Source of the DNA: Ruminococcus sp.
Lineage (GTDB): Bacteria > Bacillota > Clostridia > Oscillospirales > Acutalibacteraceae
Length of the DNA stretch: 64,000 nucleotides
Direction: 5' to 3'
Assembly (NCBI GenBank): GCA_017411835.1
Contig: JAFQPG010000003.1
Coordinates: 1 to 64,000, forward strand
Shown: positions 2,004-13,105 of the stretch, one piece after another
Position numbering within the stretch: position 1 is the stretch's first letter
How the letters are laid out: every line of letters begins with the position of its first letter
Translations under genes and position numbers: made by a program
Notes under the pieces: generated by a model
Told to the model about the DNA's origin: nothing
Database searches by the model: none
What the model saw: only the letters and a program-made list of their open reading frames with translations

Positions 2004-5000
2004 ATGAAAACAATTTCAAAGCGTTTTCTCAAAGGTAGCTTAGCCGTACTGCTCGCCGTAGTAATGCTCTTCGGTAGCTGTATCTCCGGCTTTGCCGCAG
2101 TTGTAGATAACGCTGACACCTCTGCTAATGTTGATGTTGCTGAAACAAGCGCAAATTTTAGTAAATTTAATGTTATTTTTGATAACACTAATTCAAAGTG
2201 GTCCGATGTTTACTTTTTTGTTGGTCACGGTTCTTATTCACAACCATACAAAATGACTAAAATTAGTAATACAGGTAACCTTTACGCGCTTACTGATTTT
2301 AGTTGGGGCAATGCAACTCAATTTTGCTTTGCTACTGGCCTATCAGGCTGGGGCGGTGAAAATTCTTCTGTTTCTAATCGAACTAATTGGTGCACTAACT
2401 CAAGTGTTATTAATATGAGCGGTGACTATTCGGGCTTTTTCTATGCTAGAGCAGCAAGTGGTAGTGATGGCGCAACTACTACCTGTACTTACACTAGTAG
2501 TGGTTACAGTTATTTTAACTCAACACAAACTGCTAAAATCTACTCTACTCCTTATGGTAGCAGTACATATACTGAGGATACTTCAGCCGGCTCTGTAGCT
2601 TATAGTACTTACATGCTTAATAGTAATTCAGGTACTACTTCTTCTACTGGTACTAATTCAGCTACTGCAGCTAAAACAGCGACTGTTAAAATGACTGCAA
2701 CAGCTAGTTCAGGATACACTTTTAAAGGCTGGACTACAACAAAAGGTGGTGCTCCAACAGTAACTACAAATCCTTATTCTTATACTTGTACTGGTGCAAC
2801 CACATATTACGCATGCTTTGAGAAAGCTCCTACCTACACAGCTACATTTGAAGACTGGGACGGAACAAATCTCAAAACTGAGTCTAATTTAGCTTCTGGT
2901 GCTACACCAACTCCACCAACAAATCCTACTCGTGAGGGCTACACCTTTACTGGTTGGGATCCTACAGTTGGTCCTATCAATGCTAACACTACATACACAG
3001 CACAGTATTCTATTAATAGCTATACTGCTACATTTGAGGACTGGGATGGTACACCATTAAAAACTCAGACACTTGACTATGGTTCTACTCCAACTGCTCC
3101 TGCTAACCCTAGCCGTACAGGTTATACCTTTACTGGTTGGTCTCCTACAGTTTCTGCTATCACAGCTAATACTACCTACACAGCTCAGTATTCTATCAAT
3201 AGCTACACTCTTAATGTAGATGAGGAAGGTGCTACAGGTACTATAAAGCTTGACGGCGCAACTGTAAATTCAAAAACAGTTAACTACAATACTCCTGTTG
3301 CTATCACTGTTACACCTCCAGAAGGACACAAGATTTCTTCCATCGGCGGTGGCGGTCTTAACGTTGGCATGCAGGCTGACGGCGCTTCTTGGACCGGTTC
3401 AGTTAACGTAACTGAAAATACTACTATCACAGTTGCTTATGCAGTTTCCGGTTCATGCACTCCTGTATTTACACACGGTACTGCTGATGCTAACTTAGCT
3501 CTCGGCGCTACATATGATAACCCGGCTGAAGGTAATAGTTTTTGTAAAGGCAATAAAGATTGTTCTTATAAATCAAATAATGAAGAAGTTGCTACTGTTG
3601 ATGCAAACGGTGTTGTAACAGCGCACAAGGCTGGCGAAGCAACAATCACAGCTACTTGTGACTGTGACGCAACTGCTTCTTATAAGGTGATTGTTCACAA
3701 CCCTACATTTACAGTAGGTGGTATGAACCTTGACGTTTATGGCAATGGCGCTCAAGATACTGCTGCTCCTACTATCACTGCTTATGCTCCTGCATCAGGC
3801 GTATCATATAGCTATTCAACTTCTGCTACTGGTATCACAGTAGGGGAAACAAACGGCGTTGTTAACGCTTATGTACCTGATACATATACAGTTAACGTTG
3901 CTCTCAAGTACAACGGTGCACAGGTTGCTACTACTTCATTTAACGTATCGGTTGCTACACCTGCTTTTTCTATTAACCCTACGGCTGTAACTCTTATTAA
4001 AGGCCAGACTATGGAAGAGCCTTTTGTTACATCAGCTGACGGTAACCCTACTGTAACTTTCAGATCAAATGATACAGCTAGCGTTACTGTAGCAGGCGGT
4101 AAAGCAACTGGTGTGAAAGCCGGCCTTCCAGTTGCAGTATTTGCTGATTTCGAGTATAACAATAAATATATACCACATGCATCTGCAAACGTAACAGTTG
4201 TTGAGCCTGTTATCGAGGCTAGCGAAAATTCAGTTGATCTCGAATTCGGTGATGGTTCTACTAACGCAAGCACAACCGTTACTCTTACTACCAACGCTAG
4301 CGACAGCGAAGTAACTCCAAAAGCTGTAGAAGTAGAATCTGCTGACACTAATGTTGCTACTGCTACACTTAGTGGCGATACAATCACTATCACAGCTACA
4401 GGTGTTGGTTCAACAACAATCACAGCTAAGTTCTACGACGCTGAAGTTGAAATCGATGTAAATGTTACTAAATACGACCCGAATGTTACAATCTATGTAA
4501 CAGATACTCAGGATTGGGGAAAGATGAACATCTACTTCTGGGATGGTAATGCTTCATCTACTCACGCTTCTATGATTTACATTGGTCGTAATGAACAAAA
4601 CCAACGCGTATTCGCTTACAAATTTGATAAAACTAAGCTCCCTGGTAAAATTATCTTTAAACAGGGTACAGGATCAGATGACTGGACAAATCAGTCAGAT
4701 GACCAGACGTTTGATATTTCTACCAATAACGCTTGGTATATTGCATCCTGTAGCAACAACAGGTCTACAGTAGGCAGATGGAACTGTCCGATAACACTTC
4801 CTACAGTTTCAGTAAATGACGTTTCTTTAGGTATTGGTGACACAGATACTGTTGAAGCTACTGCAACTGGTGCAGACTCATACTCTTGGTCTATCGATAA
4901 ATCAAATATCGCTACAGTATCAAACTCTACAACAGATACTGCTACTGTAACTGGTGCAGGCGCAGGCGATGCAACTCTCACAGTTAGAGCATTTATCCCT

Positions 5001-8000
5001 AAGCCAACAGGTTGGAATAGCATTGCATATGACCAGTCAACTGCTTATCCATACATTTCTTCAGCTGCTGAAGCTACGGTATCAGTTTCTGATGTTCTTT
5101 ACACAGTTAATGCTACTGTTCAGACTTCAGTTGACGGCACAAATTATGATGAAAATAACACAGCCGGTGGTTCTGTTACTGTAAACGGTAAAGACGGTGT
5201 TGATACAGAGGTTAGCCACGGCAAAACTGCAACACTTGTTGCTACCGCTAACGATGGTTATCGCTTTGTAGGTTGGTATAAAAATGGTGGTCAAGTTGGA
5301 ACTGCAACTGCTATGACAACTGTAGCGATCACCGCTGACACAACATATCAGGCTAGATTTGTAAAAACTTACAAAGTATCTTTTGTTAAAGATGATACTA
5401 TCGAAAGCATTACATGTAACGAAGTTAATAGAACAGAATCTTTCGATACAACTGTTGATGCAAATGCTACAATTAACTTCAGCGTAACACCTGCACAAGG
5501 CAACATATTCAGCCACTATGTAATCTCCGGTATTAATGGTCCTATCTACGATAGCTCTTATTCAATAACTGTTGATTCAGATGTTACTATCACACCTGTT
5601 ACAGTTCCTGCTTACACAGCTTCTGCTCAGGCTTATACAAACAAGGTTGATAGCACAATAGGCGGTACAGCTACTGTAAACGGTGCTAATTCTGTTGAAC
5701 TTGTAAATGGCGCTACTGCTACATTTGTTGCAACAGCAAACCCTAACTACTACTTTGCTGGTTGGTACAGAGATTCTGAATTTACTAACCTTGTTTCAAC
5801 AGACGCTACTTACAGCGAAAATATGACATCAGACGGCATAGCACTTCATGCTCTCTTTGTTAAGAATTTCTATCTTGCAAATCATAGTACAAAAGAACAT
5901 TTAGTTACATTTACATACGATATCGCTACAGATACTTACACATCTACAGATACTGATTTTGTAAATGGATTCTATGTTATTTCAGACGATAACGAAGATA
6001 TTGTAGCACCTGATGTAGTAGTGTCAAAAGATAACTTTACAGGTATTACAAGTATCGCTGGTCATTATGCAACAACAGGTTATTATTTAAATGTTGATAC
6101 TGAAAACTATGATAGTACAAAACCTGTTACTTACAAACTTGAGCCTAGCTCACCTGCTGGTACTTACAAGCTCATCATCGAGCTAACAGAGGCTACTAAG
6201 TACGACGTTTACTTCAGAGATCAGGAAACTGATACTTTGGTTGATTCAAAGGCAGAACGCTCTACTGTTACTATTCCTGTATATTCTCCAGTAGATGGTC
6301 AGTACCTCGCTTCTGCTACTGCTACTCCTGCTACTGACCTTACAATCGGCGACAACGAAATCACTTTCGTTATGCCAAGTGAGGATATCTACATCACACC
6401 TACATTCCTCGATTACAGATATATCAGCTTTACTGATGAAACAGGTCTTACAATCGAGAACTTCAAAGAGGCTTACAAGCAGGGTGAAGAGGTTAATATT
6501 ACAGTTGAACCTGCATCAGAACAGGTAACTATCTCTGACTTTAAATTTAATGACGGTGATTTAACTGCTACTGAAAACGCAGACGGTTCTTGGTCTATCA
6601 CAGGTAGAATGCCTGAAGACAAGGATATCGAAATCACACCTATAGTAGAAGCTAAGTTCGCTGTTAATTCACAGCAGGTTTCTATTGGTAACTACGGCAC
6701 AGGTGTTACAGTATTTGGTACTGTTACTATGACAGACGAAAACGGCGACACTCTCAATGAGGGTGCTTACGTTGAAGCTGGTACTTCTGTAACTTACACA
6801 GTAACTAACGTTTCTTCTAACTACACATTCGTTGGTTTCTATTCAGACTATAGTTGCGACCAGGCTATCAAGGTTGGTTCTGATTCAACTTCTGTCACAG
6901 TTAACGCTGATACTATAGTTTACGCACTCTTTGCTCGTAAACAGTGGATGACATTTGACCACGAACAAACAGGTTCTAGTTATGTTAAAGAGCTTGTATA
7001 TGACCCATCAATCAAAGCATATACACTCACAACAACTCTTACAGATCAAAACTCTTCTGCTACAGCTATCAACATTGGTGCTTGGTTCAGAGTTACAAAC
7101 AACACTTCTAAGTGGTCTACTGCTGAAGGTTACCACAGTTTTAATGCTTCAAAGTTTGCTGTAAACTTCAATGGTCATGGTTACGGCGCTACAATCGATT
7201 GGGCTGGAAATAACTCTAACGCTTGGAAACTTTCAACAAGCGCTGCATCAGGTCAGAGTATCAAGTTCATCTTGACACCAGACGGCAACGAGTCTATCGA
7301 CTTCTCTGCTATGACTACTAAGGAAGGTGCTACAATCTACCTCTCATCTGGTGCATTGACACTTCCTGGCACATATTCTGCTGAATCGGTATTCACAACT
7401 ACAGGCATTACTGTTTCAGAATCCGACACATTGAATAATATGGAATCATACAAGAAAGCAGATATTGCACAGGCTCAGATGATCGAGTTCAAGACAACTC
7501 TTTCCGGTGATTCTGCTGCTAACTACTATATTGATTCATTTATAGTTTACGACATTCTTGATAGAACATACACAATCGTTACTCCAAACACACTTGGTAA
7601 CAACTCATACTCCGGTACAGTATATGTAGATTCAGATTGCTACATTGTTCCTATCTACTTCCATACTGATGAGTATCTTGCAGCTAACAATATGAAGGCT
7701 GTAGACGTTTACTTTGACGCTACTGCTATTGCTGACACAAACTGGGGTCCATTCGTTTCTGCTTACGCTTGGGGTTCAAATAATGCTTTATACGCTGGTT
7801 CATGGCCGGGTCAGCTTATGATCCCTACTGAAGACGGTTCTTCATTCTATACACAGCTCGAAATTCCTGATACATCAGTAGAAGGTTATACTTCTGTTCC
7901 ACAGGGTCTCCAGTTTATGAACTATTTGTTCTCCGGAGATAATGGTCCTCTTACAGTTCCTTCTAAATTTGCTGCTAACTTTGGTATTACATTAAATCCT

Positions 8001-10397
8001 ATCCAGACATACGACTATCGTGAACCTATCACACTTATCGAAGAAGGTTACGATGTAATCACCTTCGTTGCTAAAACTTCTGAAGACGGTTACCACGGTG
8101 ATAGAGGCGCTGGTCAGTCTGTTACTAAGACTGTTACAAATGAAACAAACGCCAAGACAGCAGGTTATGTTTTCGAACCTCTTGTTAGCCGTGACGGCGT
8201 AACTCCAATGGACTTAACAGGTCAGTCAATCGAAGGTGCTGTATCTAATACTCCTGAGTATTATGTAATTGCAAAGGGTGATATTCTTTACGACCCAACT
8301 AGCTATACATACGCTGGTGATACAAACTTTGATGCTGACTGGGCAGTTGACTGGTACATCTTTAATAGTGAAGGCACTTATTTAACACACACACTTTCAA
8401 CAGCTATGTGGCATTATGCTGATGGCGAAAACGATACAACTTCTGAACTCGAAGATGCACTCGGCCTTGCTGATGGCGTGCTCGACGGAAAACTCGTTTA
8501 CATCTCTTACGAAGCACCTAACAACGCAAACCACCAGCTCTCTTACGACGGTCAGTGGTATGCAAATATTCTTGACGATGACGTTTACGCTGATGTTATG
8601 GTTGGTTTAGTTGATGGTGACAACAACTTTGTAATCGACACAGTTGACCCAACAAACGACGCTGACTACGGTGAAGGCTGGCTCGTTGCTCAGGAAGAGC
8701 GTGAGGGCTACACAGTAGGCGAGAAGTATGCAAGTCTTCCAATTTCTCTTGATCTTGGTGCAGTTTCCCTTACTGCTGCTACTAAGGAAGGTTACCTCTT
8801 TGTTGGTTGGTACACAGAATCTAACGGTAAATACACTAAGATTTCTGACGCTTATGACTATGAGACTTACATCAATATGAACGGAACATATTATGCTATG
8901 TTTAGAGAAATTGGTGAGGGTCAAGTTGTTATCAACCACTTAAAGTACGATAACCCTACAGATACTGTTATCCCATCACACGGCGGTATGGCTACAATGA
9001 CTGTTGAGGTTAGGGATAGTGCCGGTAATGTATTGAGTTCAGGTACTCCATCAACCGATATTTCTACAGCTGTATTCTCAGCTACAGAGAAACAGACTTA
9101 TACAATTACTATTACTACAACACCTCTTATGAACGGTGAGTTCTTCGCTTGGTACACCGATTCATTTGATGATGCAGGTAATAATACATTCGAAGAAATC
9201 GGTACAAATGGTTCGGATGTCGGTTCAACCGAAACGGTTACATTTACATACGACTTCACATTCGAAAAGGATTCACCAACTGTTATCAACCTTTACTCTG
9301 ACGTAACTCGCGTTACTAATAAGGCTGACTTCTACTACAGATATCTCAACCGTTTTGGTGAGTGGCGTACATATACAGTAAGAGATATCGAGCTTTCTGA
9401 CGATGAATGTCTCGGTTATGCTGGTAATGAAGGCCAAGCTTACTATCCAACATATCTTACAAAGTATACATACGACGACGGTTCAAATTCTTACGGTAAG
9501 ACACCTGTATCCGGTAAGACTGTAATTAACACAGAAAACAAGATTCAGCAGTACGCTCCTAACGCTGATGTAACTGAAGTATTTGACGGTACTGTAAGCT
9601 GGAGTGTTGAATCTGCAACTATCACACCTGGTAAGTCTATAATTACTATTGTTGCTGATCAGGGTAATCCAGATTACGTAATCACTTATACAATTGATGG
9701 AAAGACAGATAAAACATCAGGTAAATACAACACTCTTGCTAATATCGAAGCTCCTGCTACAAATGCTGCAGGTGACAAATTCTTATACTGGGTAGAAATT
9801 GAAGAGAATGGTGAAGAGGTTATCCTCACATATCTCCAGAACTACCGCTACCGTATTGTTGAGAATAAGACTATCAAGGCTGTTTACGGTACACAAGAAG
9901 TTGCTAAGTGGACACCATCTATCAACTCTGTAACTTATACTCGTGAGTACTCTGATACAAGCGACTATATCTACACCGACTACTTGATTGCTTATAACAG
10001 CAGTGAGGAATTAGAGCTTAATAACCTTGATGGTGTTGAATACGGTCTTATCCTTGCTCGTGATCCTAGTGTTGCTTTTGATGGTAATGGTGATCCAACA
10101 TTCCCAACATTCAGCGAGGCTGACTTTAAGAATGTAGCACAGGGTGGTAATAATGCACAGCTTAATGGTCTTAACTACTATTATTACAACCTGTCTGATA
10201 TCAAGACTACAAACCTTAACCGTCTTGACTACTACCTAAGTTACAATAATAATTACACCAACAGTAAGGGTGTTAAGTATTGCCAGTATTGCTTCACAGC
10301 AGTTGCTTACATTATCGTAGACGGTACTGTTTACCTCAGTGCTCCTGAGTATGTAAACTTCTATGATCTTGCTAACGAAGCAGTTAGAACTAACTAA
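2004..10397 (+). CDS. Giant secreted multi-domain surface protein (2797 aa) with InlB repeats, Big2 domains and starch-binding-like modules
   Basis: Start ATG 2004 follows AGGAGG at 1991-1996. A signal peptide is clear (lysines, then a hydrophobic stretch ending near residue 32, SGFAA). Residues ~50-165 are a beta-rich module with many Trp/Tyr/Phe. Residues ~277-400 hold two near-identical Listeria-Bacteroides (InlB B) repeats with GYTFTGW cores. Several Big2-like Ig domains follow at ~480-820. Residues ~825-935 (TQDWGKMNIYFWDGNAS) and ~1895-2040 (YAGSWPGQLM) resemble CBM25/26-type starch-binding modules. Further beta repeats with VGWY/AGWY motifs run towards the C-terminus. No LPXTG, dockerin, SLH or membrane anchor is seen at the end, so attachment is unexplained. 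No catalytic domain is recognised; adhesion to starch or host surface is inferred. Confidence 0.85.
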   Translation: MKTISKRFLKGSLAVLLAVVMLFGSCISGFAAVVDNADTSANVDVAETSANFSKFNVIFDNTNSKWSDVYFFVGHGSYSQPYKMTKISNTGNLYALTDFSWGNATQFCFATGLSGWGGENSSVSNRTNWCTNSSVINMSGDYSGFFYARAASGSDGATTTCTYTSSGYSYFNSTQTAKIYSTPYGSSTYTEDTSAGSVAYSTYMLNSNSGTTSSTGTNSATAAKTATVKMTATASSGYTFKGWTTTKGGAPTVTTNPYSYTCTGATTYYACFEKAPTYTATFEDWDGTNLKTESNLASGATPTPPTNPTREGYTFTGWDPTVGPINANTTYTAQYSINSYTATFEDWDGTPLKTQTLDYGSTPTAPANPSRTGYTFTGWSPTVSAITANTTYTAQYSINSYTLNVDEEGATGTIKLDGATVNSKTVNYNTPVAITVTPPEGHKISSIGGGGLNVGMQADGASWTGSVNVTENTTITVAYAVSGSCTPVFTHGTADANLALGATYDNPAEGNSFCKGNKDCSYKSNNEEVATVDANGVVTAHKAGEATITATCDCDATASYKVIVHNPTFTVGGMNLDVYGNGAQDTAAPTITAYAPASGVSYSYSTSATGITVGETNGVVNAYVPDTYTVNVALKYNGAQVATTSFNVSVATPAFSINPTAVTLIKGQTMEEPFVTSADGNPTVTFRSNDTASVTVAGGKATGVKAGLPVAVFADFEYNNKYIPHASANVTVVEPVIEASENSVDLEFGDGSTNASTTVTLTTNASDSEVTPKAVEVESADTNVATATLSGDTITITATGVGSTTITAKFYDAEVEIDVNVTKYDPNVTIYVTDTQDWGKMNIYFWDGNASSTHASMIYIGRNEQNQRVFAYKFDKTKLPGKIIFKQGTGSDDWTNQSDDQTFDISTNNAWYIASCSNNRSTVGRWNCPITLPTVSVNDVSLGIGDTDTVEATATGADSYSWSIDKSNIATVSNSTTDTATVTGAGAGDATLTVRAFIPKPTGWNSIAYDQSTAYPYISSAAEATVSVSDVLYTVNATVQTSVDGTNYDENNTAGGSVTVNGKDGVDTEVSHGKTATLVATANDGYRFVGWYKNGGQVGTATAMTTVAITADTTYQARFVKTYKVSFVKDDTIESITCNEVNRTESFDTTVDANATINFSVTPAQGNIFSHYVISGINGPIYDSSYSITVDSDVTITPVTVPAYTASAQAYTNKVDSTIGGTATVNGANSVELVNGATATFVATANPNYYFAGWYRDSEFTNLVSTDATYSENMTSDGIALHALFVKNFYLANHSTKEHLVTFTYDIATDTYTSTDTDFVNGFYVISDDNEDIVAPDVVVSKDNFTGITSIAGHYATTGYYLNVDTENYDSTKPVTYKLEPSSPAGTYKLIIELTEATKYDVYFRDQETDTLVDSKAERSTVTIPVYSPVDGQYLASATATPATDLTIGDNEITFVMPSEDIYITPTFLDYRYISFTDETGLTIENFKEAYKQGEEVNITVEPASEQVTISDFKFNDGDLTATENADGSWSITGRMPEDKDIEITPIVEAKFAVNSQQVSIGNYGTGVTVFGTVTMTDENGDTLNEGAYVEAGTSVTYTVTNVSSNYTFVGFYSDYSCDQAIKVGSDSTSVTVNADTIVYALFARKQWMTFDHEQTGSSYVKELVYDPSIKAYTLTTTLTDQNSSATAINIGAWFRVTNNTSKWSTAEGYHSFNASKFAVNFNGHGYGATIDWAGNNSNAWKLSTSAASGQSIKFILTPDGNESIDFSAMTTKEGATIYLSSGALTLPGTYSAESVFTTTGITVSESDTLNNMESYKKADIAQAQMIEFKTTLSGDSAANYYIDSFIVYDILDRTYTIVTPNTLGNNSYSGTVYVDSDCYIVPIYFHTDEYLAANNMKAVDVYFDATAIADTNWGPFVSAYAWGSNNALYAGSWPGQLMIPTEDGSSFYTQLEIPDTSVEGYTSVPQGLQFMNYLFSGDNGPLTVPSKFAANFGITLNPIQTYDYREPITLIEEGYDVITFVAKTSEDGYHGDRGAGQSVTKTVTNETNAKTAGYVFEPLVSRDGVTPMDLTGQSIEGAVSNTPEYYVIAKGDILYDPTSYTYAGDTNFDADWAVDWYIFNSEGTYLTHTLSTAMWHYADGENDTTSELEDALGLADGVLDGKLVYISYEAPNNANHQLSYDGQWYANILDDDVYADVMVGLVDGDNNFVIDTVDPTNDADYGEGWLVAQEEREGYTVGEKYASLPISLDLGAVSLTAATKEGYLFVGWYTESNGKYTKISDAYDYETYINMNGTYYAMFREIGEGQVVINHLKYDNPTDTVIPSHGGMATMTVEVRDSAGNVLSSGTPSTDISTAVFSATEKQTYTITITTTPLMNGEFFAWYTDSFDDAGNNTFEEIGTNGSDVGSTETVTFTYDFTFEKDSPTVINLYSDVTRVTNKADFYYRYLNRFGEWRTYTVRDIELSDDECLGYAGNEGQAYYPTYLTKYTYDDGSNSYGKTPVSGKTVINTENKIQQYAPNADVTEVFDGTVSWSVESATITPGKSIITIVADQGNPDYVITYTIDGKTDKTSGKYNTLANIEAPATNAAGDKFLYWVEIEENGEEVILTYLQNYRYRIVENKTIKAVYGTQEVAKWTPSINSVTYTREYSDTSDYIYTDYLIAYNSSEELELNNLDGVEYGLILARDPSVAFDGNGDPTFPTFSEADFKNVAQGGNNAQLNGLNYYYYNLSDIKTTNLNRLDYYLSYNNNYTNSKGVKYCQYCFTAVAYIIVDGTVYLSAPEYVNFYDLANEAVRTN

Positions 10398-10414
10398 TTT
10401 GGGAGGGAAATGCA

Positions 10415-10555
10415 ATGAAGAAATTTTATACTGAGCCGGAAATCGAGCTCGTAAATATCACGCTTATTGCTGATGTTCTCGGCCCAAGCACTTATGACCC
10501 TACTGAGGAATCTGTTCCTGTTGTTGGTACAGAATTCGTAGATCCATTTGAATAA
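10415..10555 (+). CDS. 46-residue acidic peptide, candidate RiPP-like precursor or small regulator
   Basis: ATG 10415 has an excellent ribosome site (GGGAGG, 10401-10406) and lies 17 bases after the giant gene, so the two are probably co-transcribed. The peptide starts MKKFYTEPEIELVNI, continues with an ADVLG segment, and ends in an acidic tail rich in Thr, Ser, Tyr, Asp and Glu (ending FVDPFE). It has no signal peptide, transmembrane segment or cysteine. The Lys/Tyr-x-x-Pro-x-x-Glu opening resembles leaders of many short uncharacterised gut Firmicute peptides that I recall near PqqD-type proteins. A PqqD-like gene lies 1.1 kb downstream, which supports but does not prove a precursor role. 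Confidence 0.65.
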   Translation: MKKFYTEPEIELVNITLIADVLGPSTYDPTEESVPVVGTEFVDPFE

Positions 10556-10562
10556 TTAACAA

Positions 10563-10588
10563 CCCCCACGGTGGAGACACCGTGGGGG
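10563..10588 (+). promoter_or_regulatory. 11-bp perfect stem with GAGA loop between peptide and LRR-dockerin genes
   Basis: CCCCCACGGTG (10563-10573) and CACCGTGGGGG (10578-10588) close a GAGA tetraloop just after the peptide stop. No T tract follows, so it is more likely an RNA stability or processing element, or a weak attenuator, than an intrinsic terminator. Confidence 0.6.
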
Positions 10589-10613
10589 ACAGACTACCAA
10601 AAGGTGATTATTT

Positions 10614-11531
10614 ATGAAAATTACTAACAGAATTATTTCAATGATACTTTGTATCTTGATTATATCTGCTACAGCTTGCCTTGCGGTTAGCGCAAAAACT
10701 GTATTCCCTGTCGGTGACTGGGTATACGAAAAGATTAATAATAACACAGAATTTGAGATTGATTTATATACCGGTACGGATACTTCTGTTTCAACGGTTT
10801 ATTACCACAACAGCATTCCGATTACATCAATCGGTACACATGCTTTTCTGGACAATACAACCATGACAAGCATAACATTAAGCCCAATGGTACATAGCAT
10901 TCAGTCACAGGCATTTTTAAATGTTGCCCAGCTGGAAACTGTTACCTTCAAAGGTGACATCAAGTTAATTGGTTCCTATGCTTTTGCAGGATGTAAATCT
11001 CTTAAGAACATCGCCTTAGAAGAAACACAGATAACATCTGTTGCTTTTTCTTCTTTTATGAACTGCGATGCTCTTACTGAGGTTACCTTGCCTGATACAG
11101 TAACTGAAATCGGCTCTGAAGCTTTTGCATATTGTGACTCACTTTCAAAAATCACAATTCCTGCATCAGTTACTACTATTGACGAAGATGCTTTCTATAA
11201 TACTGCAAACGTAGTTATTTACTGCTATACTGATTCAGCGGCTCACGCCTTTGCGCAAGCAAACGAAATCGAGTTCGTTTTACTTGATCAAGAGGTTGAA
11301 ACCTATGTTTGTGGCGACGCTGATAACGACGGCGAAGTTTCTGTAATGGATGCTTCCGCTATCCAGCTTGTTTTAGCAAGCAAGAAGACAGACGAGGATG
11401 GTAGATTATCCATCCGCGGTGATGTTGATGGCGATGGTGAATTATCAGTTATGGACGCTACAGCAATTCAGCTGTTTATAGCAGAGAAATTGACTATTGA
11501 AACACAAATAGGAAATATACTAGAGTATTAA
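10614..11531 (+). CDS. Secreted BspA-type leucine-rich-repeat protein with C-terminal dockerin
   Basis: Signal peptide at residues 1-27 (ends CLAVSA). Residues ~60-215 carry five or so LRR_5 (BspA-like) repeats with the pattern IGSxAFxxCxSLxxIxLPxxVTxI. Residues ~238-295 form a dockerin with two calcium loops (DADNDGEVSVMD and DVDGDGELSVMD). The start follows AAAGGTG (10599-10605). BspA-type LRRs bind proteins or surfaces, so the protein would be a non-catalytic part docked onto a scaffold. It lies between the 46-residue peptide and the PqqD operon, and a strong terminator closes its transcript. Confidence 0.88.
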   Translation: MKITNRIISMILCILIISATACLAVSAKTVFPVGDWVYEKINNNTEFEIDLYTGTDTSVSTVYYHNSIPITSIGTHAFLDNTTMTSITLSPMVHSIQSQAFLNVAQLETVTFKGDIKLIGSYAFAGCKSLKNIALEETQITSVAFSSFMNCDALTEVTLPDTVTEIGSEAFAYCDSLSKITIPASVTTIDEDAFYNTANVVIYCYTDSAAHAFAQANEIEFVLLDQEVETYVCGDADNDGEVSVMDASAIQLVLASKKTDEDGRLSIRGDVDGDGELSVMDATAIQLFIAEKLTIETQIGNILEY

Positions 11532-11550
11532 TTTTGTTATGAATCTTTTT

Positions 11551-11576
11551 GAGCTCCCTTTTTGGGAGCTCTTTTT
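11551..11576 (+). terminator. Intrinsic terminator after LRR-dockerin gene
   Basis: GAGCTCCC (11551-11558), TTTTT loop, GGGAGCTC (11564-11571), then TTTTT. Confidence 0.9.
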
Positions 11577-11612
11577 GTTTAGTTTTATGATGTTATTCTG
11601 TTTATAAATTCC

Positions 11613-11641
11613 TTGCAATATAGTGAAATTTACTATATAAT
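11613..11641 (+). promoter_or_regulatory. Sigma-70-type promoter of the PqqD operon
   Basis: TTGCAA at 11613-11618, 17-base spacer, consensus TATAAT at 11636-11641. The -10 lies only 20 bases from the start codon, giving a short leader. It makes the PqqD trio a separate transcript from the genes upstream. Confidence 0.75.
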
Positions 11642-11660
11642 TATTTAGTAGGTGATATAT

Positions 11661-11924
11661 ATGAAGATAAAATCCGGCTTTGTTTTAAAGGAAATTGCTG
11701 GCAGCCATCTTGTCGTTCCGCTTGGCTCGCAAGTAGTCGATTTTGGTGCGATTATCAAGCTGTCTGAAACAGGTGCTTTTTTGTGGTCGATGCTTGAACA
11801 GGAAAGCAGTTATGAACAGCTTGTTTGTGCTTTAACTTCTGAATATGATGTCGATAAAGCGAAAGCACAAAAAGATGTTGACAGCTTTATTAATAAGTTA
11901 AAGGAAGCAGATTTGCTTGAATAA
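11661..11924 (+). CDS. PqqD-like peptide-recognition (RRE) protein
   Basis: 87 residues from ATG 11661, preceded by AGGTG; an in-frame GTG at 11652 lies too close to the promoter and its ribosome site. The protein fits the PqqD family: an N-terminal beta sheet (GSHLVVPLG), a middle helix (LSETGAFLWSML), and helices containing YDVDKAKAQKDVDSFINKL. In PQQ and many RiPP pathways PqqD-type domains bind the leader of a precursor peptide and present it to a modifying enzyme. Here the usual radical SAM partner is absent from the window. It overlaps the next gene by 8 bases, indicating translational coupling. Family confident; target peptide unknown, the 46-residue peptide at 10415 being the obvious candidate. 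Confidence 0.85.
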   Translation: MKIKSGFVLKEIAGSHLVVPLGSQVVDFGAIIKLSETGAFLWSMLEQESSYEQLVCALTSEYDVDKAKAQKDVDSFINKLKEADLLE

Positions 11925-12363
11925 TTTAATCTCAAAGGAAGTTTTTTTACCCGTTTTAGAACAAACTCTAAATAGCGGTAAAGACTTTGTTTTTACGCCG
12001 ACAGGCACGAGTATGAAGCCGATGCTAAACGGCACGACCGACAAGGTTACTCTTGCAAAAAAGCCTGAAACTCTTTTTAAGTACGATGTCGTGTTTTTTA
12101 AAAGAGCAAAGGATGGCGCGCTGATTTTACATCGCATCGTTAAGGCTGAAAACGGTAGCTTTGTGCTTAGCGGAGATAACCAGTACTACTATGACTTTGA
12201 TGTCAAATACGATGATATTTTCGCTGTTGTAAAGTCTTTCACTCATAACTCGAAAAATATTTGCGTTGATGACTTTTCCTACAAGCTTTATAGCAGAATA
12301 ATTCTTTTTAAGAAAAAAGCACGAATTTTTATCTCAAAAATTTATCACAAAATTTTTAAATAA
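11917..12363 (+). CDS. S24/S26-family (SipW-like) serine peptidase
   Basis: Start is TTG 11917, eight bases before the PqqD stop, with AAGGAAG at 11901-11907. No ATG is available before the catalytic motif. The nucleophile box is GTSMKPML (Ser at residue ~32). The second catalytic position reads LHRIVK: His stands where bacterial type I signal peptidases have Lys, as in SipW and ER-type enzymes. The terminal SGDN box is present. There is no N-terminal membrane helix, unlike normal signal peptidases; the C-terminus is basic and amphipathic. Placed after PqqD, it is a candidate leader-removing protease for a small peptide. Fold and active site are visible, substrate inferred. Confidence 0.82.
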   Translation: MNNLISKEVFLPVLEQTLNSGKDFVFTPTGTSMKPMLNGTTDKVTLAKKPETLFKYDVVFFKRAKDGALILHRIVKAENGSFVLSGDNQYYYDFDVKYDDIFAVVKSFTHNSKNICVDDFSYKLYSRIILFKKKARIFISKIYHKIFK

Positions 12364-12384
12364 ATTACCCACAGAGGCGTTATT

Positions 12385-13059
12385 ATGGGACAATATAGAA
12401 TTGCTGAATTGAATCTTGAAATTTTGACAAATTCAAAAACGTTATTAAAGCATTTAAAGCCATACGAGACATCGTTTGAATATAAGCCTAACCTTACTTT
12501 AAGTATTTCTGATGATATGCTCTTGCAATTTATGGAGGAGTATGAGGGCTTTACTGCTGATGTTATCGAGTGCATCTACCTGTCAACGGAATTTATGCGT
12601 GCGCTTTTTGATTTTAATGGCATTTCAGTATTTTCTACTGCTGTTGAATACGACGGCAGTGCGGTTTTGTTTGCAGCACCTTTTTCTGAAGAAAATGTAG
12701 CCGATAAATTACCCGATGATAAGGTGCTGGCGGTTGATTACCCAGCAATCAGACTTATTTCTGATACGTTTTATGCTTATGGCACGCCTTTTGGAATGAT
12801 GGGTGACAAAGCAAAGGATGTAAAGCTTCCTATAAAAAGTATCGTTTATGTTGATAATGAGCGATTTGACTCTCTAAAAACTCTTGATACAAAGGATATG
12901 GTTTCGTGCTTTGTGCGTTCAGTTATGATGAGTATCAAAAGCGAACGCACTAAACATTCTCTCTTTATGCTTGAAAAGATGATGCGTAAAGTTAAGTTCT
13001 ACGGAGTAGGCGATTTGTCTGATGTAGATTTCATTTTGGAAAAGGTAACTGAAGAATAA
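12385..13059 (+). CDS. HprK/PEP-carboxykinase-like protein with missing P-loop
   Basis: 224 residues, 21 bases after the peptidase gene. Residues ~91-135 align with the core of HprK-like proteins that accompany PqqD genes: a hydrophobic strand (SAVLFAAP), then the loop, then DYPAIR and FYAYGTPFG. In active relatives the AP is followed by SGTGKST; here it is FSEENVA, with no Gly-Lys-Ser. ATP binding by the usual loop therefore looks lost. The reading frame is intact with normal codon use, so this is not an obvious pseudogene. Possible roles: a scaffold for PqqD and the peptidase, or a decayed enzyme. Assignment rests on motif context and neighbours. Confidence 0.65.
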   Translation: MGQYRIAELNLEILTNSKTLLKHLKPYETSFEYKPNLTLSISDDMLLQFMEEYEGFTADVIECIYLSTEFMRALFDFNGISVFSTAVEYDGSAVLFAAPFSEENVADKLPDDKVLAVDYPAIRLISDTFYAYGTPFGMMGDKAKDVKLPIKSIVYVDNERFDSLKTLDTKDMVSCFVRSVMMSIKSERTKHSLFMLEKMMRKVKFYGVGDLSDVDFILEKVTEE

Positions 13060-13079
13060 TATTTTTTACATATAAAAAA

Positions 13080-13105
13080 GCCGACGGTGTTGTCCGTCGG
13101 CTTTT
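13080..13105. terminator. Bidirectional terminator between HprK-like gene and rex
   Basis: GCCGACGG (13080-13087) and CCGTCGGC (13094-13101) with TTTT after and AAAAAA before, serving convergent transcripts. Confidence 0.9.

What the first reader, a model, noticed from the sequence alone, without database searches (positions are those of the whole stretch)
10415..13059. Peptide plus PqqD, SipW-like peptidase and dead HprK: a RiPP-like system without a modifying enzyme
A 46-residue acidic peptide with a strong ribosome site lies 1.1 kb before a tight operon of a PqqD-like leader-binding protein, a soluble Ser-His S24/S26 peptidase and an HprK-like protein. These are the parts expected to recognise and cut a precursor peptide, yet no radical SAM, YcaO, lanthipeptide or lasso enzyme is seen and the only kinase-like member lacks its P-loop. 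The set sits inside a block of secreted and dockerin proteins. It could be a peptide-tagging, peptide-signal or surface-display pathway not yet described. Linking peptide and trio is inference.
Basis: partly seen in the sequence, partly recalled or inferred. Interest (0 to 1): 0.8.

Follow-up and report, generated by a model that had tools for sequence, protein, structure and literature searches.

The report
Leader-guided companion peptide of surface proteins
A gut bacterium carries a short peptide gene, right behind a giant secreted protein, whose conserved front half looks like an address label read by nearby processing proteins; label and reader occur together across many related bacteria, pointing to a peptide-processing system whose product and purpose are unknown.

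Summary
The window holds a 46-aa peptide gene (10415-10555), a PqqD (11661-11924), an S24/S26-type protease (11917-12363) and an HprK-like protein without P-loop (12385-13059). The own genome has one PqqD and one such peptide gene.

The guessed link is real at the genome level. A model of the peptide's first 27 residues hits 40 of 200 family genomes, and all 40 carry PqqD (98 of 200 do). Outside the family 52 of 56 hit genomes carry PqqD against 111 of 382. Conversely, 58 of 98 PqqD genomes have no hit.

The leader is Y-x-x-P (published motif of lasso-type leader-binding proteins), then DV[IL][TA]xS, a plausible signal-peptidase site. More than half of these peptide genes stand directly behind a secreted-protein gene; 50 of 69 are not within 8 kb of PqqD, so PqqD probably acts in trans. 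Several relatives add ABC exporter, nucleotidyltransferase, P-loop HprK and some a radical SAM.

Best reading: an RRE-guided peptide maturation system, reduced here, whose peptides accompany large surface proteins. No lasso B2 peptidase was found in this genome. The dead HprK is a conserved pseudokinase. Product chemistry and purpose are unknown. New variant of a known kind.

The parts
2004..10397 (+). 2797-aa secreted repeat protein (List_Bact/InlB-type repeats, Big_2, CBM26-like) directly upstream of the peptide
   Evidence: a long ORF ends at the same place before the peptide in L004, L005, L006, L010, L049, L052 (cut by the contig or locus end except in L049)
10401..10407 (+). strong ribosome-binding site of the peptide gene (GGGAGGG)
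10415..10555 (+). 46-aa precursor-like peptide: leader about residues 1-25 (YxxP, DVLGPS), acidic tail
10563..10588 (+). strong GC hairpin right behind the peptide stop, -25.5 kcal/mol, z -5.7; similar hairpin read by eye in L005 (4319-4345) and L006 (4892-4915)
   Evidence: (folded in the window only)
10614..11531 (+). secreted LRR_5 protein with dockerin-like repeats
   Evidence: kept in L004, L005, L006, L010
11551..11571 (+). terminator-like stem-loop with T run, between the dockerin protein and the trio
11613..11641 (+). promoter-like site TTGCAA-17-TATAAT before the trio (consensus match only; the region has no excess of such matches)
11661..11924 (+). PqqD-type leader-binding protein (RRE); its profile matches four solved chains, best TbiB1, then a lasso PqqD chaperone (9x90) and TfuB1
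11917..12363 (+). soluble S24/S26-type serine protease, Ser32-His72-Asp87
12385..13059 (+). HprK-like protein without P-loop (conserved pseudokinase)
13076..13105 (.). terminator-like hairpin closing the trio

Best explanation
A leader-guided peptide maturation system. The peptide's front half (MKKxYxxPExE...F...DV[IL][TA]xS) is a leader: Y-x-x-P is bound by PqqD (inferred from the published motif and the lasso B1 relatives), and the soluble signal-peptidase-like enzyme cuts behind the conserved small-x-Ser (inferred), freeing an acidic, hypervariable tail of about 20 residues. In relatives a P-loop HprK kinase and, in several cassettes, an NTP_transf_5 protein and an ABC exporter would modify and export it; in the window's lineage the HprK partner has lost its ATP site but is kept under selection, so it probably serves as a scaffold or recognition subunit, and no exporter lies at the window locus. 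The peptide gene is the direct 3' companion of a large secreted-protein gene, so the product most likely acts together with that protein at the cell surface (inferred). PqqD probably acts in trans on scattered peptide genes in many relatives. Shown: conserved leader, co-occurrence with PqqD, position behind secreted proteins, P-loop loss with conservation. Inferred: binding, cleavage, modification, export, role.
For: Leader model A5: 69 places in 40 of 200 family genomes (E<=0.01), all 40 PqqD-positive (98 of 200); 31 genera, all within the 69 PqqD genera of 135, P about 1e-11; 28 genera without three seed genera, P about 1e-10. Outside the family 52 of 56 against 111 of 382. 19 of 69 places within 8 kb of PqqD, all same strand and upstream. 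Of 66 places with a known upstream neighbour, 32 follow a complete secreted protein of 350 aa or more on the same strand within 250 bp, 5 a shorter secreted one, 11 an ORF cut by the contig end; controls for the first class 5 of 76 small and 25 of 354 larger genes. Leader conservation Y/F5 71 of 71, P8 67 of 71, S24 55 of the 60 with a letter there (partly circular, the model chose them). PqqD profile finds TbiB1 and TfuB1. YxxP is a published recognition motif of lasso RREs (PMC12710340, section 7). Two PqqD-HprK fusion proteins, L125 and L131; 61 of 62 HprK-hit genomes carry PqqD. Peptides with this leader stand in radical-SAM cassettes L105, L111, L113, and weaker matches in L127, L140, L015.
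Against: 58 of 98 PqqD genomes have no peptide hit at E<=0.01, and 7 of 13 loci show no hit among ORFs of 25-130 aa, among them L007, L008, L009, L011, L012 of the same pseudokinase clade; four of these five (L007, L008, L011, L012) have an ABC-exporter-like gene behind the trio instead (by resemblance). S24 is missing between PqqD and HprK in L004 and L049. 4 of 58 class-level peptide genomes have no PqqD hit at E<=1e-6, three of them (G455, G483, G500) with peptide E below 1e-4. 8 of 66 places have an upstream neighbour on the other strand. No binding, cleavage or product was shown; terminator and promoter-like site separate peptide and trio in the window. Signal peptides were called by a crude home-made rule.
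Confidence: 0.6

Rival explanations
1. The peptide is an ordinary RiPP precursor whose modifying enzyme (radical SAM or another) is encoded elsewhere in the genome and acts in trans.
For: Relatives with the same leader type stand next to radical SAM genes (L105, L111, L113, L127, L140, L015); 50 of 69 peptides are not within 8 kb of PqqD, so trans action looks normal here.
Against: Of the 66 peptides examined 7 have Cys; in four it lies inside the leader (residues 14-19), and only the three radical-SAM-linked ones (G132, G063, G080) have Cys at or behind the leader end, four each. The window's peptide has no Cys. The own genome was not searched for radical SAM genes.
Confidence: 0.14
2. The window locus is a decaying remnant of a RiPP system that has lost kinase activity, exporter and modifying enzyme.
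For: No ABC exporter or nucleotidyltransferase beside the trio, unlike L052 (Pfam) and, by resemblance, L007 and L013; the four full-length own ABC matches to the L007 exporter are only 24-28% identical; P-loop gone.
Against: dN/dS 0.11-0.12 for the HprK-like gene in the 3 of 4 pairs where it could be computed (dS near saturation) and 0.11-0.20 for PqqD in 4 pairs; identity 68-70% and 63-72%. The pseudokinase is 221-224 aa long in 11 of 11 loci of the clade.
Confidence: 0.1
3. The trio serves assembly of the large surface proteins themselves, the S24 protein working as a SipA-like chaperone or dedicated processing enzyme, and the peptide is an assembly factor rather than a product.
For: Peptides sit behind secreted proteins; Foldseek lists SipA, a signal-peptidase homologue essential for pilus polymerisation, fifth (PMC4049620, seen as title and abstract start in the listing).
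Against: Ser, His and Asp are all conserved and no transmembrane anchor is seen, so it should act inside the cell; PqqD and the exporters of relatives argue for a peptide substrate.
Confidence: 0.1
4. The window peptide and trio are neighbours by accident and the trio handles another peptide.
For: A terminator-like and a promoter-like site separate them; trio loci without visible peptide exist.
Against: The single PqqD and the single leader-pattern match of the genome lie 1.1 kb apart; same order in L004, L005, L006, L010; genome-level association.
Confidence: 0.05

Closest known systems
Lasso peptide clusters of Firmicutes with HprK and nucleotidyltransferase (paeninodin, pseudomycoidin)
   Same: Discrete PqqD-type B1 protein, YxxP leader, HprK homologue; nucleotidyltransferase and ABC exporter in several relatives of the window system (PMC8498205 passages)
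   Different: No B2 peptidase (PF13471) in the own genome; in the family 26 of 200 genomes match at E<=0.001, 3 over the cut-off, one strongly (G173), and none of the 26 is among the 40 peptide genomes. An S24/S26 protease instead. The paeninodin kinase target is a C-terminal Ser; 5 of 66 peptides end in Ser. Lasso cyclase not searched genome-wide.
Radical SAM RiPP systems with PqqD and HprK-like partner (SynChlorMet cassette, HPr-rel-A system, as named in NCBIfam)
   Same: The own second HprK matches ScmC at 31 bits; radical SAM proteins of relatives match ScmE/ScmF and other maturases
   Different: Far below the curated cut-offs: own second HprK 31.2 against 125 (ScmC) and 16.1 against 200 (HprK_rel_A); window PqqD 13.3 against 35 (PqqD_rel_X). 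The window has no radical SAM at the locus.
Orphan discrete-lasso-type RREs noted in RRE-Finder
   Same: PqqD-like proteins best fitted by the discrete lasso model but without lasso peptidase and cyclase; only about 4,000 of almost 8,000 had them in that paper (PMC7470986 section 8)
   Different: That section names no peptide family, S24 protease, HprK or surface-protein link for the rest; it mentions about 300 with radical SAM enzymes.
Signal peptidases SipW / SEC11 / SipA
   Same: Ser-His-type S26 core and similar fold
   Different: No membrane anchor seen; NCBIfam sigpep_I_arch 25.7 bits against 51.85, SipW 13.6 against 190

Membership tests
RRE / PqqD-type leader-binding protein | PF05402 above gathering score | tested here: met
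   68.1 bits against 23.4
RRE / PqqD-type leader-binding protein | cognate peptide with a YxxP recognition motif | tested here: inconclusive
   Motif present and co-occurring; binding not testable here
Lasso peptide biosynthesis | lasso_PqqD_Bac NF033536 over cut-off | tested here: not met
   42.4 bits against 80
Lasso peptide biosynthesis | B2 transglutaminase-like leader peptidase (PF13471) | tested here: not met
   No match in G000 (99.2% complete)
Lasso peptide biosynthesis | lasso cyclase (asparagine synthetase-like C protein) | not tested
   No genome-wide search was made; none noticed among the genes around the trio
Lasso peptide biosynthesis | core with Gly1 and Asp/Glu at 7-9 behind the leader end | tested here: inconclusive
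   10 of 66 peptides with a crude parse; the window's GPSTYDPTE would give Glu9 if cut before its Gly (by eye), not at the small-x-Ser site
Radical SAM RiPP (sacti-/ranthipeptide) | radical SAM maturase next to the precursor | tested here: not met
   None recognised at the window locus; present in relatives L105, L111, L113, L127, L015 (NCBIfam) and by resemblance L140
HPr kinase/phosphorylase | Walker A P-loop | tested here: not met
   Absent in 11 of 11 loci of the window clade, present in the 30 other loci examined (41 in all)
HPr kinase/phosphorylase | HprK/PEPCK fold | tested here: inconclusive
   Foldseek lists PEPCK and HprK/P first, E 2.5e-4 to 1e-3, but TM-scores 0.2-0.55; its profile finds P-loop relatives
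S26 signal peptidase | catalytic Ser-His(-Asp) | tested here: met
   Ser32, His72, Asp87 invariant in 11 sequences; catalytic roles assigned from recall of SEC11
S26 signal peptidase | family model over cut-off and membrane anchor | tested here: not met
   Pfam S24 22.3 against 23.3; sigpep_I_arch 25.7 against 51.85; anchor judged by eye
SynChlorMet / HPr-rel-A systems | component models over cut-off | tested here: not met

The most novel reading that the evidence does not exclude
A general companion-peptide system of Clostridia: many large surface proteins are each encoded together with a short leader-bearing peptide, and one central PqqD/S26/HprK set, acting in trans, matures these peptides so that the freed tails are displayed on, attached to, or control the assembly of their partner surface proteins. 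This would be a RiPP-type leader machinery that serves surface-protein biology rather than a natural product, with a lineage in which a pseudokinase replaces the kinase.
Probability: 0.25. Interest if true: 0.85.

Novelty: new variant of a known kind. Interest (0 to 1): 0.64.

Why it matters
RRE-Finder left about half of almost 8,000 lasso-like leader-binding proteins without lasso partners. This work gives such proteins in Clostridia a candidate substrate family with a defined leader, a candidate leader protease, and an unexpected genomic partner (large secreted proteins). The role of these orphans then becomes directly testable with two purified proteins and a synthetic peptide. A conserved pseudokinase in the lasso-type kinase family would also be a good probe of what that kinase does besides phosphorylation.

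Tried and rejected
Lasso peptide: rejected for the window (no PF13471 in the genome; PqqD below the lasso cut-off; 10 of 66 cores fit a crude lasso pattern), with the caveat that the cyclase was not searched genome-wide. C-terminal domain shared by the upstream giant proteins: tested by clustering, hhalign and two regular expressions; no homology between four clusters; the two motifs, chosen after looking, hit 12 of 42 upstream proteins and 4 of 100 other secreted proteins: suggestive only, not used. Description in print: the searches (open library only) listed no paper that I could recognise as describing this peptide-PqqD-S24-HprK set. Read: section 8 and passages of PMC7470986, section 7 and passages of PMC12710340, passages of PMC7533575, PMC10352776, PMC12257519 (its 'S24' are figure numbers) and PMC8498205; PMC5067487 was opened but the searched terms were not found (89); the rest as listings. 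SynChlorMet is absent from the library; what I say of it is the NCBIfam name only. Names of flanking genes (Rex, isocitrate dehydrogenase, aconitase) are recalled from the sequence, from no call, and so are exporter, nucleotidyltransferase, SCIFF and chain-length-regulator labels of loci not scanned. The first pattern search was mistyped (one N short) and was repeated correctly. Distances of class-level peptide-PqqD pairs were picked by eye from capped tables and are not exhaustive: of 21 pairs on one contig (two of them from the family) 17 lie within 8 kb, all same strand, 13 with PqqD downstream and 4 upstream.

Limits of the counts: of 69 leader places one (G087:C34:121) was not fetched, two are at contig edges, two carry an early in-frame stop (G018:C24, G014:C98:5433) and stay in the 66; five of the 40 family genomes supplied seeds of model A5, and other seeds (L004-L015) come from GTDB genomes that may be near relatives of G genomes; hypergeometric values ignore phylogeny, which the genus-level count only softens. 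Model A6 for the class scan was built only from family genomes. Leader conservation counts (71 = 66 hits of 30 aa or more + 5 loci) come from model-selected sequences. L009, L011, L014 and L016 are cut close to the trio, and a Y-S-K-P stretch inside a longer ORF of L016 was outside the size limit. P-loop status was not read for loci L088-L123.
Full report
What is in the window. The peptide ORF 10415-10555 (46 aa, acidic) has a GGGAGGG ribosome site and starts 17 nt behind the stop of a 2797-aa secreted repeat protein. It is followed by a strong hairpin (10563-10588, -25.5 kcal/mol, z -5.7). A similar hairpin stands at the same place in L005, with one base pair changed on both sides, and in L006, with another loop (read by eye). 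Then come a secreted LRR/dockerin protein, a terminator-like stem-loop, a promoter-like site (consensus match only) and the trio PqqD, S24 and HprK-like. The trio therefore probably has its own transcript.

The parts. PqqD is a clear PF05402 member (68.1 bits) whose profile finds the lasso B1 proteins TbiB1 and TfuB1 among solved structures, but it is below the lasso cut-off of NCBIfam (42.4 against 80). The S24 protein keeps Ser32, His72 and Asp87 in the 11 aligned sequences; its model is confident (pLDDT 92) and its best matches, at E 0.001 and weaker, are SEC11, SpsB, LexA and SipA. The HprK-like protein has no family match over a cut-off; its model resembles PEPCK and HprK with low TM-scores. 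It belongs to a clade that has lost the P-loop in 11 of 11 loci, whereas the 30 other HprK-like loci examined keep it. It is not decaying: dN/dS 0.11-0.12 in the 3 of 4 pairs where it could be computed, with dS near saturation, like PqqD. The own genome has a second relative with P-loop at C1:76284 and an NTP_transf_5 protein at C5:91255, both away from the trio.

Is the peptide tied to PqqD? In the own genome there is one PqqD and one match of the pattern MKKx[YF]xxPxxE, written as DNA. Four of 13 loci found with PqqD in GTDB genomes keep the order giant ORF, peptide, dockerin protein, PqqD, (S24), HprK-like (L004, L005, L006, L010); two distant ones, L013 and L015, also have a peptide; the other seven show none among ORFs of 25-130 aa, some of them on short contigs. 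A profile of 12 leaders (A5) was run on 200 family genomes: 69 places in 40 genomes at E<=0.01, and all 40 genomes are among the 98 with PqqD at E<=1e-6. By genus it is 31 of 31 within 69 of 135 (28 without three seed genera; P about 1e-10). A profile of 34 family leaders (A6) on 391 class genomes gave 58 genomes, 54 with PqqD; outside the family 52 of 56 against 111 of 382. HprK-like hits are in 31 of the 40 peptide genomes against 62 of 200, and 61 of 62 HprK genomes have PqqD. The reverse does not hold: 58 of 98 PqqD genomes have no peptide at this threshold.

Anatomy of the peptide family. In 71 sequences (66 hits and 5 loci) position 5 is Y or F in 71, position 8 P in 67; then comes a DV[IL] stretch and a Ser at position 24 in 55 of the 60 that have a letter there; tails average 24 residues and charge -5 (partly circular because the model selected them). 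Y-x-x-P is a published recognition motif of lasso RREs (PMC12710340, section 7). T/A/G at -3 and S at -1 fit the small-residue rule of signal peptidases (recalled), so I infer that the S24 protein cuts there; the window has G-P-S at this place. The tails rarely fit a crude lasso pattern (10 of 66) and rarely end in Ser (5 of 66).

Where the peptides sit. Of 66 places with a known upstream neighbour 56 have it on the same strand within 250 bp; 32 of these neighbours are complete secreted proteins of 350 aa or more, often 12-20 bp away, 5 are shorter secreted ones, 11 are ORFs cut by the contig end and 8 look non-secreted; 8 places have a neighbour on the other strand and 2 a gap of 250 bp or more. 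Controls in the same loci for the first class are 5 of 76 small and 25 of 354 larger genes. Signal peptides were called by a crude rule. 19 of 69 places are within 8 kb of PqqD, all same strand and upstream of it; the other 50 are further away or on other contigs, with up to eight places in one genome (G073), so the set must act in trans if it acts on them. Cassettes of relatives show fuller sets: peptide-HprK-PqqD-S24-ABC (L056, L057), giant protein-peptide-HprK-PqqD-S24-nucleotidyltransferase-like (L086), peptide-two secreted proteins-PqqD-S24-ABC-NTP_transf_5 (L052; Pfam), and forms with radical SAM (L105, L111, L113, L127, L140, L015); among the 66 peptides only the three of L105, L111 and L113 have Cys at or behind the leader end. 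Labels other than those are by resemblance. PqqD and HprK are fused in one protein in L125 and L131. Within the pseudokinase clade, loci with peptide (window, L004-L006, L010, L049) have no exporter gene behind the trio, while L007, L008, L011 and L012 have an exporter-like gene and no visible peptide.

Mechanism. The best-supported reading is leader capture by PqqD, cleavage by the soluble S26-type protease and, in relatives, phosphorylation, nucleotidyl or glycosyl transfer and ABC export by parts known from lasso clusters (paeninodin kinase, pseudomycoidin nucleotidyltransferase: PMC8498205 passages). In the window lineage the kinase is a conserved pseudokinase and no exporter lies at the locus (the four full-length own ABC matches are 24-28% identical to the exporter of L007). 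The product's partner is probably the giant secreted protein in front of the peptide. Leader, association, position and P-loop loss are shown; binding, cleavage, modification, export and role are inferred.

Known or new. It works like an RRE-dependent RiPP system but is not a lasso system by the tests made here (no B2 peptidase; PqqD below cut-off; cyclase not searched genome-wide) and not a SynChlorMet or HPr-rel-A member (below cut-offs). RRE-Finder reports that only about 4,000 of almost 8,000 discrete-lasso-type RREs have lasso peptidase and cyclase (PMC7470986 section 8); this system is a plausible home for part of the rest. My paper searches listed no description of it that I recognised in the open library held here. 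I file it as a new variant of a known kind. The main weakness is that nothing biochemical is shown and that many PqqD sets have no visible peptide.

Noticed in passing
window 10563-10588; L005 4319-4345; L006 4892-4915: A strong GC hairpin right behind the peptide stop codon recurs in two relatives, in L005 with one base pair changed on both sides; it may protect or end the giant-protein/peptide transcript.
   Followed up: partly
L125 6494-7621 (-) and L131 6558-7688 (-): Proteins of about 375 aa that match both the HprK-like and the PqqD model, next to a radical-SAM-like gene and a 63-aa peptide ending in KPCCLD: a natural PqqD-HprK fusion.
   Followed up: no
L054 4436-8784: A SCIFF-like Cys-rich peptide and radical-SAM-like gene (names recalled) directly precede a nucleotidyltransferase-like gene, a P-loop HprK, PqqD and S24.
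   Followed up: no
L004 4877-4914 and L049 about 9605-9614: The S24 gene is missing between PqqD and the HprK-like gene in two close relatives of the window locus.
   Followed up: partly
L007, L008, L011, L012 against window, L004, L005, L006, L010: In the pseudokinase clade an exporter-like gene behind the trio and a visible leader peptide exclude each other.
   Followed up: partly
class genomes G412, G216, G215: 21, 17 and 13 leader-type peptide matches against 2, 2 and 1 PqqD matches; good candidates for studying the system in trans.
   Followed up: no
L127, L140, L015, L013, L056: Genes that look like polysaccharide chain-length regulators (recalled) recur near the ABC/PqqD cassettes, hinting at an exopolysaccharide link.
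   Followed up: no
L087 474-764 and L076 6098-6428: Two different leader-type peptides in tandem before one HprK gene.
   Followed up: no
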